Source: Dichotomocladium elegans (lineage: Eukaryota; Mucoromycota; Mucoromycetes; Mucorales; Lichtheimiaceae). Taken from it: DNA of 64,000 bases. The DNA is taken from positions 1,364,001 through 1,428,000 of the forward strand of contig JAIXMN010000001.1 of the NCBI GenBank assembly GCA_025716815.1, written 5' to 3'. Each line of letters begins with the position of its first letter. Position 1 is the stretch's first letter. Position numbers and translations under genes: made by a program. The notes under the pieces are model-generated. The model was given only the letters and a program-made list of their open reading frames with translations, did not search any database and was not told the origin of the DNA. Shown here piece by piece: positions 18,353-26,389 of this stretch.

Positions 18353-18900
18353 TTAGTCCTCTTCTTCGACAATGACCTTGGTAGTAGTTTTGGTTTCAAC
18401 AATCACACCAGATTCTTCTCTAATGTTCCCGCCTTTTTCATATTTAATCTTGTGGGATGATCCACCTATTCGTACACATGTAAGAAATGCGCCCAAGTAC
18501 GATGCGCTCTGATAGTTACCTCCACTTGAAGAATGGCCGCCCTTCGAGCCTACAGCAAGAGAGCCTTCGACATGTTTCTCGCGTGATCCTTTGCTCTGAC
18601 GTCCAGACTTCTTTTGAGCAGATGACTTCTTGCGCTCTTCACTCGAGTCTTCATCTGAACCGGAGCCAGAGCCGGAGCCAGAGCCGGAACCAGAGCCGGA
18701 GCCAGAGCCAGAGCCTTCATATGCCTTCTTTCGCTGCTGCTGACGTTTCTTGCCATTATCACAATCCTTTTTCACCGATTTTTTCTTCTGGCACTTCTTC
18801 TATAGATATTGCGTTAGCGCATAATTTACGAATGCGATGCTATATTCATACCTCCTCGGAGCCGGAATCATCTTCGGAGCCAGAGCCAGAGCCGGAACCA

Positions 18901-18942
<42 letters not shown>

Positions 18943-19321
18943 GAGTCATCTTCAGAACAGGACCCCTTACTCTTCTTGGGCACGCATTTCTTCTTGGGCA
19001 CGCATTTCTTCTTGGGCTCGCACTTCTTTTTGGGCTCGCATTCCTTCTTGGGCTCGCACTTCTTCTTGGGCTCGCATTCCTTCTTGGGCTCGCACTTCTT
19101 CTTGGGCTCGCACTTCTTCTTGGGCTCGCATTCCTTCTTGGGCTCGCACTTCTTCTTTGGTTTGCACTCCTTCTTCGGTTTGCACTCCTTAGGCTCGCAC
19201 TTCTTGGTTTCGCACTTCTATCAACGTCATTAGTTCCCTTCAATAGGACCTGTCCCATTGTCATCATTTACCTTCTTCTTGGAGTCAGAACCAAAGGAAG
19301 AGCCGGAGTCCGACTCTGAAT

Positions 19322-22300: not shown

Positions 22301-25300
22301 CAACTCCCGTTCAGACGTGGTGGCGAGATTCTTGAGCTCGTCTTGCGAATGCTGAACTGACGATACTTGGTTAGCAAAGTCAGAGAACCATTTTTGGATG
22401 GTCACAGTTGTCTCTGTATACGGGTGGTGAAACAATAAAAAAAAAAAAGAAATGATAAGCAAGCAATTCTAAAGTGGCATTCAGCGAGCTATACCTTCAA
22501 TGTAAGTGAGAGCTTGCTGTTCAGTGGTGATATGAATCGTGACCGTCTGCTGTGGTTGTTGATGCGTCTGTGGCTTCTCATTATGAGGTGCAGTGTGGCT
22601 TTGGCCGGTTTTGCACTTGTGCGTCTCCTCAGTCACCTGCTTTATCGTCGTCTCGGTGAGCGAGCTGATCTGCTCCTCAAAGGATACGTAGGACTCAGAC
22701 TTGGAAGCAATGGTCTTGACCTGTTGAACGTGCTTAGCGGCAATGACTTCAACCCACTCAAATGCCTTTTCAAAAGAGACGGTTTCGGTAGTTGATGTGG
22801 ACTTCTTAAGCGTCGAGCATGTCTTTTTCTTCTGCGACACGATGGTCTTGAGTCGCTCATACTCACGCGCGACAATTGCGTCAACGTCTTGCTCGCAGTT
22901 GTTTCCGCCCTGTTTGACGCGGTCAGACACCTGACCTCGGAGCTCTGAAATCCACTGGACGACGACGACGTTCACTTCCTCAGCGACTGAGACAATCGAC
23001 ATGGTATCTGTGGACTTGGAGACAATCGCGTCCTGATGCTTTGGCTGATCGCTCTGCTGAGGCTTCTCGCTGGTCTTTGGCTGCTCAGGGTGCTGAGGCT
23101 TCTCGCTTGTCTTTGGCTGCTCGGGCTGCTGCGGTTTCACGCTGGTCTTTGGCTGCTCAGGGTGCTGAGGCTTCTCGTTGATCTTTGGCTGCTCAGGGTG
23201 CTGCGGTTTCACGCTGGTCTTTGGCTGCTCGGGCTGCTTCTTCGGCTGCTCATGGCCAGTGTCTTTGGCACACACCTTCGAGACAGCGTGATCAATTTTC
23301 TTGACCTCGTCGAGATGCTCAGATGAGCCAAAAGTATACTTGATATACTTGTGTACGGACTCTTGAGACACTTCTTTGGTTTGAACAATCTTCTTGAATC
23401 GGACAAGCGAGGCAAGGATTGTAATCTGGAGAGTCTCTAATGTGTACTCGTACTGGTGGAGAGTTGATGTTGACAGCTGGGATGACTGTTGCTTGATCGT
23501 GAGCCTGGCCTCGTCAATCATCTCCTCAAGTTCCAGCTGAGCAGCGTCGATGAGCGAGAGTGTGTCCTCTTTTGGTAGACCCTTAATGGTATAACTGGCC
23601 TGGAGTTCCTTGACGAGCTTCATATACCAGGTGTTTATCCTCGTCTTGGTCTCGTTGATAGAAGCGGTGACACGTTCGACGACTGAAGTCTCTTCTTCGG
23701 TAACAGTGGTCTCTTCCGTCTTTTCCTCTTCGGTGATCTTGCTCTTGGTAATGATGGTCTTCTGGCAAGTATCTAACTCAGTGCTGAGTTTCTCCTCAGT
23801 AGATTTGATCCAGCTGGAAAGGTATTCCTCCGACGCGTAAACCTTTTGACTGGAGACTGTAGTCATCTCCTCGCTGAGGATGGTCTCTACGCGATCGAAA
23901 GTGGTGGTGACTGAACTCTGCACGCCTTCTACAAGATCCCATGACTTGGAATTCTTGATAGTCGTGCGGGTCTGGCTTATCTCGTTCTTAAGCTTCTGAT
24001 GGGCTTCCTGAACAATGACTTGAAGCTCTTGCTCAGATGCACCGCGCTGCTTCGCCTCAGCGATCTTCACGGAGAAGGAGGTCAAGTAGTAACGGAATGA
24101 AACCCTGACACTAGCCACGGCAACCAAAGTCTCCTTCTTTGCGTAATGAAGCTCCATTGACGTATTCTTGCTGGTGTTTACAACTGTTTGCTTCGACTGC
24201 TGCTTTGAGGTATATTCCTGGACCTTGGTGCTGGCTTCGGTACACGATTTATCGGCAATCGTCTGGATATCAAGTGCATCGATGTTTACCTCTGTGTCAT
24301 CCTCGATGGACGAGACTCTAGATGTCATGTGATCAAACAGATTGATTTTCAGAGTCTCCTTGACTTGCTGGACAGATGCGGTGTACTCTTCCGTTGAGCT
24401 CGTCACACGCTTAGTTTGCCTCTCAAGACGCTCATAAAGATCCAATCGACTTTTTTCAATGGCAGCCAGCAATTCCGCTTTGGTCTTGGCTTGGCGGCAG
24501 CGGCGAATAAAAGTAATTCGCCAAGCGCGGACAATGGTCGTGACGACGATGGTAGTCGTGGTGGTTTTCACGAACGAGGATAGGTAGTTTGATTCGCCTT
24601 GACGGATAACAGAGGCACCAACTCGCTTAGACGCATCATCGACAGTGTCATGGCGCTCCTCAAGAGCAATTTCGTGTTCATGAGTACCCACGACTGCAGA
24701 TTGATCGGCATCCTGCTCATTGCCGATCACCGCTTTGCCGAAAGAGTACCGGAGCCAGTCACCAGAATCGAGGGTTGTGACCTGGGTTCCACCCTCAAAC
24801 CTAGTGACATAGCGCACGGTCTGCAAACCGACGGCAGCGCCAATTGTCGATACATTCTCAGGGCAAGATACACCCACCACCAGCAACTCATTAGACTTCA
24901 GGTGAATCTCTCCGTTGGGTGTCAGGGCCCAGAGCTGTGACTCAGATTGAGACTTCTGGCGAACATGCAGCTGCTCACTAACGCTAGCATCGAGGACAAG
25001 ACCGGTCTGGACATGAACGAGATAACCCTCCTCATGACGCCAGAGCTGCCAACTAAGATCCTGAAGGTTGAGTTGGCGGAGAGCGACTGCATAACCCTCT
25101 GACTTGCTGCCTTGGTCCTTCTCGACCGTGAGGGCTAGGCGCTCGCTGCCGGCATTAACGCGAATAAAAAGCTCTCCCGGTGGGAAGACACCAAAGCGAC
25201 GTACAATAGTGTGCTTGTTGACTACAGGGAGGGCAATCGAGAATTGCTGCAGCTCGACGCGCTCGGATTTCTTCTGGATATGGACGTGCATCCCTCCAGA

Positions 25301-26389
25301 CTCCTTGAGCCCGAGGACCCAAGAGCGATTATGTTTGAGGCAGATTTGGTTGTTGTCTGATAAGACCCATGCCTGGCGCTGTTCGTCGGTCTTGTCAGCC
25401 TGACAGATGTATCCTTCTTCCTCCAGACTCTCGGCAGTGAGAACATAACCCGAGTGCTTGTTGACTATGTGACCCGTAGAAGACTCATACGACCACATCT
25501 GGCTCTCGTAGTCGTTCTGGCGAAGTTCTTCAACGGTTAGGCGACCGCCTGTCTGTTTCAGGGATGATGAGTCGACACCGATGTACAGGCCCGACTGTGA
25601 CTTTAAGAAGAAATCCTGGTCGGGAAAAGTGCCTGCGGGAAGAGAGATAGCATGGCTCTGGCCTTCATAGGAGAGACACAAAATATAGGAATGAGCCTAC
25701 TTCGCTATACGAGAGGAGGGCGTGGTTACTAAGAAGTGTATTACCTTCTCTGTTTGAGCTGTTCGATGACTCGTCAAAGTCGCCGGAGCTCTTCTTCACT
25801 TCGTAGTACTCTGAGGTTTCTGACTTGAGCACAGGCTGCAAAAAGGTCCACTGTTGCTCTTTGCTAGGTTTATCTGCACTCTGGAGATGTGCTTTAAGGC
25901 CCTCGCGGCGGGCAAAGAAGGATTCCTTGATGGCCACGACAAAAGACGGCTCGTCCTTGGGGCAGATACGACCATCCTCAGTCAATCCAAACTTTTGGTA
26001 CTTGTCCTTTTCTGAGGCAATCTGATGTTGTACAATCTCAGTACCAGCCTTGATATTGCCTTTTGAAGTGTGGCGTTAATGGTCATGTGCGGTGAATACA
26101 AGCGTTCTTGTCTCTTTCACCCTCATAAGTTTTACCTTTGGCGATTTCCATCACCATATTCGATCCTTTGTTAATGAGGTGGCCCTCGCCATCCTGGCGC
26201 CAAAGTTGGGTGTCGGGGCTATTTGCATTCAGAGCAGAGATAATGATGTTGGCGCCTTCCAAGGGTTGCGGGGCTGTCAGAACGAGGCCGTTCTGATTTT
26301 TGATGAAAAACCAGCCTAACAAGAAAGCGGTGAGAATAAATTTTTCGCGCATGCATGTTGTACATACTCTGAGGAAATTCTTGTGTCAT
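18353..26389 (-). CDS. Giant trefoil/helical-repeat protein with Cys-Lys and Ser-Gly-acidic tail, unknown function
   Basis: I do not recognise a named family. Eleven exons on the minus strand: 26389-26368, 26315-26136, 26059-25745, 25662-22495, 22413-20246, 20160-19660, 19586-19533, 19469-19272, 19217-18852, 18799-18520, 18465-18353. They sum to 7365 nt, exactly 2454 codons plus stop, with every junction in phase. Residues about 7-480 are ricin-B-like beta-trefoil repeats (WFFIKNQNG, TQLWRQDGEG, SQMWSYE, WQLWRHEEG, SQLWALTPNG). From about 535 come many 100-160-residue helical modules starting TTTTI..W and rich in Lys/Glu. Two of these near residues 1485 and 1650 are almost identical (TTWYRRIVEETY). 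There is a Pro/Gln/Lys-rich spacer (EQPKTS.KPQ, five copies) and a Gly/Ala-rich hydrophobic stretch near 1365-1395. The tail from about 2119 holds SG runs, acidic patches and 14 Cys-x-Pro-Lys-Lys repeats. No signal peptide is seen. A cytoplasmic structural or scaffold role is a guess. Confidence 0.85.
18970..19217 (-). repeat. Coding tandem repeat: Cys-Glu-Pro-Lys-Lys-Lys/Glu hexapeptide array
   Basis: About 14 copies of an 18-nt unit (TGCGAGCCCAAGAAGAAG type) inside exon 9 of the giant gene. The first two units are shortened and the last two carry Val in place of Glu. Ser-Gly dinucleotide-codon runs flank the array in the same gene (about 18661-18710, 18885-18945 and 19320-19385). Confidence 0.9.

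What the first reader, a model, noticed from the sequence alone, without database searches (positions are those of the whole stretch)
18353..26389. A 2454-residue protein of unknown family: trefoil lectin head, helical-repeat body, Cys-Lys and Ser-Gly-acidic tail
All eleven exons join in phase to exactly 2455 codons, so this is one gene and not several neighbours. The architecture is unusual: ricin-B-like trefoils at the N terminus with no signal peptide, then roughly eight or more Lys/Glu-rich helical modules, and a tail with SG runs, acidic patches and Cys hexapeptides. The modules include two near-identical copies near residues 1485 and 1650. I know of no described fungal protein with this layout. 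Size, repeats and missing secretion signal suggest a cytoplasmic scaffold, filament or plug (for example at septa or on organelles), but that is a guess.
Basis: partly seen in the sequence, partly recalled or inferred. Interest (0 to 1): 0.75.

Follow-up and report, generated by a model that had tools for sequence, protein, structure and literature searches.

The report
Shortened fungal wound-clotting (gellin) protein
This giant protein of a bread-mould relative looks like a cut-down sister of the gellins, the proteins that turn leaking fungal cytoplasm into a plug after wounding, and it keeps only three of their ten head domains.

Summary
The species is Dichotomocladium elegans (Mucorales). 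The protein is not of unknown family. Its three N-terminal beta-trefoils correspond one-to-one to domains Gll1, Gll2 and Gll7 of ten-trefoil Gellins, the Mucorales proteins tied in print to protoplasmic gelation on disturbance. Of 18 relatives mapped in full, 14 have exactly ten trefoils; D. elegans has its own ten-trefoil copy on another contig. Behind the head lie nine modules of about 150 residues; one was predicted, as a four-helix bundle. The same modules follow the trefoils in 17 of the 18. The tail (Cys-Lys hexapeptides, Ser-Gly runs, acidic blocks) is the least supported part: no mapped relative has such arrays, though Mucor mucedo's protein ends in a short acidic Ser-Gly stretch. The public gene model lacks it, through an intron with an atypical donor inside the last module. 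Lichtheimia hyalospora has the same 1-2-7 head; two unnamed sequences share the 2-7 fusion. The tree suggests an old duplicate of the ten-trefoil gene that lost seven domains. Best reading: a reduced gellin that helps clot cytoplasm at wounds. Function is inferred from kinship, not shown.

The parts
18353..26389 (-). whole gene, start codon to stop; 11 exons, 2454 codons plus stop (10 exons, 2472 aa, if the 18519-18466 intron is retained)
   Evidence: spliced frame without internal stops
25818..26386 (-). beta-trefoil 1 = Gll1 (residues 2-148), spread over exons 1-3
   Evidence: position-specific profiles: Gll1 161 bits, next best 100
25211..25636 (-). beta-trefoil 2 = Gll2 (residues 182-323)
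   Evidence: Gll2 156 bits, next best 66; Pfam Ricin_B_lectin 35.3 bits for exon 4, cut-off 29
24716..25195 (-). beta-trefoil 3 = Gll7 (residues 329-488), joined directly to Gll2
   Evidence: Gll7 161 bits, next best 47.5
24134..24568 (-). helical module M1 (residues 538-682), holds the conserved VRAWR stretch
   Evidence: E 3.7e-4, 4.3e-10 with the independent profile; 45% identical to L. hyalospora M1
23678..24133 (-). helical module M2 (683-834)
23189..23674 (-). helical module M3 (836-997)
23034..23238 (-). Pro-Glu-Gln-Pro-Lys-rich linker repeats between M3 and M4
   Evidence: Tandem Repeats Finder, period 36/72
22532..22999 (-). helical module M4 (1061-1216), no clear counterpart in L. 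hyalospora (best 26%)
22007..22516 (-). helical module M5 (1222-1364), crosses intron 22494-22414
   Evidence: P0019 and P0020 frames depart at the same position (by eye)
21947..22012 (-). Gly/Ala-rich 22-residue hydrophobic segment (1363-1384), candidate membrane-binding motif
   Evidence: 2 of 2000 shuffles reach its length; segments of this kind in 13 of 18 relatives, P0001 counted, some of them in the head
21173..21646 (-). helical module M6 (1485-1642); predicted four-helix bundle
   Evidence: (mean pLDDT 81)
20693..21163 (-). helical module M7 (1646-1802), 71% identical to M6
20125..20668 (-). helical module M8 (1811-1963), crosses intron 20245-20161
19660..20115 (-). helical module M9 (1967 to about 2118), cut short in the NCBI model
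18353..19586 (-). tail (residues 2119-2454): acidic Ser blocks, Ser-Gly runs, Cys-Lys hexapeptides; absent from the NCBI model
   Evidence: 18 Cys in 336 residues against 22 in 1581 of the body; inclusion in the protein not proven
18971..19205 (-). Cys-Lys hexapeptide array, about 13 copies of an 18-bp unit
   Evidence: Tandem Repeats Finder score 316

Best explanation
The gene encodes a reduced member of the gellin gene family, kept beside the ten-trefoil gellin of the same genome. It most likely sits dispersed in the cytoplasm of the largely undivided hypha and takes part in clotting at wounds. When a hypha is cut, outflow pulls on the long protein. The helix-bundle modules serve as extensible spacers that open under force, and the trefoils Gll1, Gll2 and Gll7 bind each other and the ten-trefoil gellin in a shared network. 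The Gly/Ala segment and exposed helices attach organelle membranes, and the charged, Cys-rich tail, if part of the protein, adds further cross-links. Shown here: the gene, its domain order, which three trefoils it kept, the shared modules, and a tree that fits descent from a duplicated gellin gene. Inferred: location, gelation, force response and every cross-linking step.
For: Each of the three trefoils scores far best with one position of the ten-domain gellins (161/156/161 bits against 100/66/47.5 for the next), with profiles built without window or L. hyalospora sequences. 14 of 18 mapped relatives have exactly ten trefoils, and 17 of 18 carry at least one of the same helical modules; decoys give none. 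PDB 6lci is 98.7% identical to Gll1 of two Mucor relatives, and exon 3 of the window, part of its trefoil 1, matches it at E 2.4e-17. Window plus L. hyalospora form a group (support 100) that groups with the D. elegans ten-trefoil copy (support 100). All 17 relatives with a source name belong to Mucorales genera (genera placed from recall). No N-terminal hydrophobic leader is seen. Gellins are described as giving protoplasmic gelation on disturbance in Mucorales (PMC12712441). The module model has four helices, mean pLDDT 81.
Against: Seven of ten Gll domains are missing, so properties of whole gellins may not carry over. Which Gll domains unfold under flow or bind membranes could not be read, because the primary paper is not held. 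No expression, location or mutant data were available. The fold search gave no significant relative of the module (best E 0.26). The NCBI model lacks the tail, and none of 18 relatives shows the tail's arrays.
Confidence: 0.72

Rival explanations
1. The duplicate has left wound clotting and now works as a standing cytoplasmic scaffold or organelle tether, using the same folds without flow-induced gelation.
For: Absence of Gll3-6 and Gll8-10 removes most of the head; the body is long and carries a membrane-like segment.
Against: Identity to L. hyalospora is highest in the head (54-63%, against 26-53% for each module's best match), so the gellin head is the best-kept part; no direct data either way.
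Confidence: 0.18
2. The protein ends inside exon 6, as in the NCBI model, and the Cys-Lys/Ser-Gly stretch is not part of it. (This concerns the tail alone and can hold together with the best explanation. Raised from 0.15 to 0.2 on re-check, because none of 18 relatives has the arrays.)
For: NCBI model P0001 ends at 2056 aa. None of 18 relatives has a Ser-Gly run or Cys-Lys array by the patterns, though many of them are cut short.
Against: Its extra intron has donor GTTTCA while 10 of 10 others begin GTA, and it truncates module M9 (profile positions 3-68 instead of 3-143). M. mucedo P0005 ends with a 77-residue stretch that is acidic Ser-Gly-Asp and Lys-rich with two Cys. L. hyalospora has Cys-Lys and Ser-Gly linkers before its last module (by eye).
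Confidence: 0.2
3. The trefoils act as true lectins that bind sugars, for self or non-self recognition in defence.
For: Pfam Ricin_B_lectin match over cut-off.
Against: No leader; each domain is closest to one gellin position, and the 6 relatives found with exon 4 are gellin pieces.
Confidence: 0.06

Closest known systems
Gellins of Mucorales (Nguyen et al. 2021, Curr Biol 31:271-282; known here only through its citations in PMC12712441, PMC10023807 and PMC11842775, and recall)
   Same: Gll beta-trefoils in the same order (1, 2, 7), followed by the same helical modules; same order of fungi; no visible secretion signal
   Different: Three trefoils instead of ten; Gll2 fused directly to Gll7; Cys-Lys/Ser-Gly tail; no C-terminal dehalogenase-like domain, which three ten-trefoil relatives have
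PDB 6lci, 'mdaA-1'
   Same: Matches exon 3 (part of trefoil 1) at E 2.4e-17 and is 98.7% identical to Gll1 of Mucor bainieri and M. ambiguus relatives
   Different: A 206-residue chain holding one such domain
Lichtheimia hyalospora K492DRAFT_27014 (P0002)
   Same: Same Gll1-2-7 head and nine helical-module matches; 50% identical over 46% of the query
   Different: Model ends inside its last module; modules like M8 are duplicated there, while the M6/M7 pair is peculiar to D. elegans
Septal pore plugging (SPP) proteins and Woronin bodies of septate fungi
   Same: Seal wounded hyphae (PMC10023807 passages)
   Different: Act at septal pores; homology was not tested

Membership tests
Gellin gene family (by descent) | Gll-type trefoils orthologous, domain by domain, to those of gellins | tested here: met
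   Position profiles and tree
Gellin gene family (by descent) | Helical modules behind the trefoils, as in long relatives | tested here: met
   Nine modules in the window; 1-16 in 17 of 18 relatives, none in P0018, which ends in the head (decoys)
Gellin as defined in print (ten Gll domains; definition recalled) | Ten Gll trefoils | tested here: not met
   Three trefoils; hence a reduced paralog, not a ten-Gll gellin
Gellin as defined in print (definition recalled) | Restricted to Mucoromycota | tested here: inconclusive
   17 of 24 relatives carry a source name, all of Mucorales genera; 7 are unnamed, and searches scored capped candidate lists
Gellin as defined in print (definition recalled) | Cytoplasmic, no signal peptide | tested here: inconclusive
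   No hydrophobic leader in MTQEFPQSWFF; no predictor run, no location data
Gellin as defined in print (definition recalled) | Hydrophobic motifs that bind membranes | tested here: inconclusive
   One Gly/Ala segment of 22 residues in the body; binding not testable
Gellin as defined in print (definition recalled) | Flow- or wound-induced gelation; loss leads to bleeding | not testable with these tools
   Needs mutants and protein
Ricin-B lectin (PF00652) | Profile match over curated cut-off | tested here: met
   35.3 bits against 29 for exon 4; exons 2 and 3 alone stay below it (20.3 and 15.1)
Ricin-B lectin (PF00652) | Sugar binding | not testable with these tools
   None

The most novel reading that the evidence does not exclude
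Lichtheimiaceae use a two-part clot: a ten-Gll gellin and a natural mini-gellin with only Gll1, 2 and 7. In the mini-gellin a helix-bundle body unfolds as a force spring. A charge-blocked tail with 18 cysteines phase-separates, and disulfides form as leaked cytoplasm meets air, hardening the flow-formed gel into a covalent plug. (Lowered from 0.14 to 0.12 on re-check, because none of 18 relatives has the tail's arrays.)
Probability: 0.12. Interest if true: 0.75.

Novelty: new variant of a known kind. Interest (0 to 1): 0.5.

Why it matters
Gellins are a striking case of a protein gel set off by flow (recalled). A natural relative that kept just three of ten trefoils for as long as Dichotomocladium and Lichtheimia have been apart points to which domains may be enough, and offers a smaller protein to test. 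It also draws attention to the helical body, which makes up most of this protein and recurs behind the trefoils of the long relatives. I could not check whether the primary paper treats that body.

Tried and rejected
Unknown family: rejected.

Several neighbouring genes read as one: rejected for exons 1-6.

Weak matches taken as chance or low complexity: the helical body to a clostridial neurotoxin construct in the PDB (E 0.17 and 0.52); the Pro-Glu-Gln-Lys linker to an inulosucrase chain (E 0.0011) and to C44 of the same genome (E 9.3e-5); DUF6441 (E 0.0017, below its cut-off); Apolipoprotein in P0003 (24.6 bits against a cut-off of 90).

Possible drift of the helical-module profile: the final profile grew from 2 seeds to 110 matches over four rounds and held the window's own modules, so its E-values flatter the window. 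The seed profile alone found 17 matches. Decoys gave none. The profile without window or P0001 rows keeps all nine modules.

Constancy of Pro and Lys in the Cys-Lys units: not used as evidence, because the units were chosen by that motif.

Structure of the head without an alignment: mean pLDDT 46.7, not used.

Literature: seven searches. Only PMC12712441 held both 'gellin' and 'gellins'. I saw passages of PMC12712441, PMC10023807 and PMC11842775 only, and search listings for the rest. Nguyen et al. 2021 is not held. Its ten-Gll-domain description, Mucoromycota restriction, wound-bleeding phenotype and membrane-binding motifs are recalled; the count of ten was found independently. Whether that paper already mentions three-Gll copies could not be checked.
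Full report
What is there. The gene lies on the minus strand at 26389-18353. Nine introns give an uninterrupted 2472-residue frame. The 18 residues that it would otherwise add are half hydrophobic, in a tail that is otherwise 6.5% hydrophobic, so I prefer the spliced form. The window belongs to Dichotomocladium elegans: protein P0001, BX666DRAFT_74407, is 100% identical over 96% of the query. 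The species is in Mucorales, Lichtheimiaceae.

Gene model. It then continues in a way that an intron 19887-19799 (donor GTTTCA) explains, with an early stop. The other ten introns all begin GTA. The Mucor mucedo relative P0005 ends, after its last module, with 77 residues that hold an acidic Ser-Gly-Asp stretch, Lys-rich stretches and two Cys, but no hexapeptide array. None of 18 relatives has a Ser-Gly run of four or more units or a Cys-Lys array by the patterns used; many of them are marked partial or end early. Exon 6 is therefore well supported and exons 7-11 only moderately; cDNA would settle it.

Family. Pfam sees a Ricin_B_lectin match in exon 4 (35.3 bits, cut-off 29). Three protein searches found 24 proteins: 3, 17 (two of them already known), and 6. 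Searches scored capped candidate lists (7988 and 7992). Of the 24, 17 have a source name, all from Mucorales genera (placed from recall, except D. elegans); 7 are unnamed. Profiles started from the window's three trefoils and its M6/M7 pair were iterated over P0001-P0018 and the window. Of these 18 relatives, 14 have exactly ten trefoils; P0018 has nine, P0003 five (Gll6-10 by profile, so probably incomplete), and P0001 and P0002 three. Helical modules follow the trefoils in 17 of 18, 1 to 16 per protein; P0018, which ends in the head, has none. Reversed and locally shuffled versions of all 19 sequences gave no match to either profile. The six shorter proteins were scored apart: P0019 and P0020 hold Gll2, Gll7 and helical modules, and P0021-P0024 hold pieces of the Gll6-10 part.

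Which trefoils. Ten position-specific profiles were built from the 14 ten-trefoil proteins. The window's trefoils score 161 bits as Gll1 (next 100), 156 as Gll2 (next 66) and 161 as Gll7 (next 47.5); L. hyalospora gives the same 1-2-7, though its Gll2 reads 112.6 against 63.3. The frames of P0019 and P0020 begin just before or inside Gll2, so their first domain cannot be seen. PDB 6lci ('mdaA-1') is Gll1: 287.6 bits against 113.8 for the next position, and 98.7% identical to the Mucor bainieri and M. ambiguus relatives. It matches exon 3 of the window, part of trefoil 1, at 2.4e-17.

Known function of the family. PMC12712441 (passages) says that Mucorales have Gellin proteins which, activated during disturbance, give protoplasmic gelation, citing Nguyen et al. 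2021. [quoted passage not shown] That paper is not held. The description of gellins as ten Gll beta-trefoils, some unfolding under flow and some binding membranes, is recalled. The count of ten fits it. That the ten-trefoil proteins found here are those Gellins is therefore an inference, though a strong one.

The genome's other copy. On contig C30 (143-6552, minus) D. elegans has ten trefoils in the order 1-10, and the contig ends there. At the start of contig C32 lies a frame with a helical-module match (E 9.5e-10) and a domain homologous to the C-terminal end of ten-trefoil relatives P0009, P0015 and P0016. By profile that domain is of haloacid-dehalogenase type (PDB hits to 2.7e-15). It was found in 3 of the 19 proteins searched and not in the window's. 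The likely reading is one ten-trefoil gellin gene broken by the assembly in its repeats; the two pieces were not joined. Searches with P0006 and with the window's exons found no third gellin locus, apart from weak matches on C46 and C44; these searches score best candidates only.

Descent. A tree of Gll1+2+7 (18 tips) joins the window with L. hyalospora at 100, and these two with the C30 copy at 100. P0001 was left out as a duplicate of the window and P0018 as incomplete; P0003 gave Gll7 only; P0019-P0024 were found later. The tree is unrooted (shown at midpoint) and deeper nodes are weak (64). No ten-trefoil Lichtheimia protein was found, so the duplication is dated only as before those two genera parted. 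The head is 54-63% identical between the two species; each module's best match is 26-53%. M1, M2, M3 and M5 pair one-to-one, M4 has no clear partner, and later tandem copies arose in each lineage. Over 133 codons the M6/M7 pair has dN about 0.15 and dS about 1.26.

The body. M6 aligned with the window's eight other modules folds in prediction as four helices with mean pLDDT 81.2 and pTM 0.71. No solved structure stands out. A 22-residue Gly/Ala hydrophobic segment (1363-1384) follows M5. Two of 2000 shuffles reach its length, and segments of this kind, some of them in the head, occur in 13 of 18 relatives (12 of 17 without P0001). It is the best candidate for membrane attachment, but this is inference.

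The tail. It has 336 residues with 18 Cys (5.4%, against 1.4% in the body) and alternates basic Cys-Lys blocks with acidic Ser blocks and Ser-Gly spacers. In its main array 13 of 15 Cys stand in Cys-x-Pro-Lys units. L. hyalospora has Cys-Lys and Ser-Gly linkers before its last module (by eye). A role in cross-linking is a proposal.

Verdict. The family is known; the reduced 1-2-7 form with this tail is a variant of it, for which I found no description in the papers that I could search.

Noticed in passing
L029:591-1382 (contig C32:591-1382); P0009, P0015, P0016 C-termini: Three ten-trefoil gellin relatives, and probably the D. elegans ten-trefoil copy, end in a haloacid-dehalogenase-type domain (PDB profile hits to 2.7e-15). 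An enzyme-like domain on a clotting protein is unexpected.
   Followed up: partly
contigs C30 (start) and C32 (start): The ten-trefoil gellin gene of this genome seems split between two contig ends, so automatic gene models of it are likely to be incomplete.
   Followed up: partly
window 19799-19887: The NCBI gene model BX666DRAFT_74407 appears to contain a doubtful intron (donor GTTTCA) that drops the tail.
   Followed up: yes
window 20693-21646: Helical modules seem to turn over by tandem duplication separately in Dichotomocladium (M6/M7) and Lichtheimia (copies matching M8).
   Followed up: partly
window 12688-13362 (+), 36818-37615 (-), 40187-41017 (+), 55139-56173 (-): Ordinary neighbours: aldo/keto reductase, ZIP zinc transporter, Kri1, sugar transporter; tRNA-Leu at 1185 and tRNA-Glu at 49357.
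   Followed up: no
window 61658-63268 (-): Open frame of 536 aa with no Pfam match at E 0.01.
   Followed up: no
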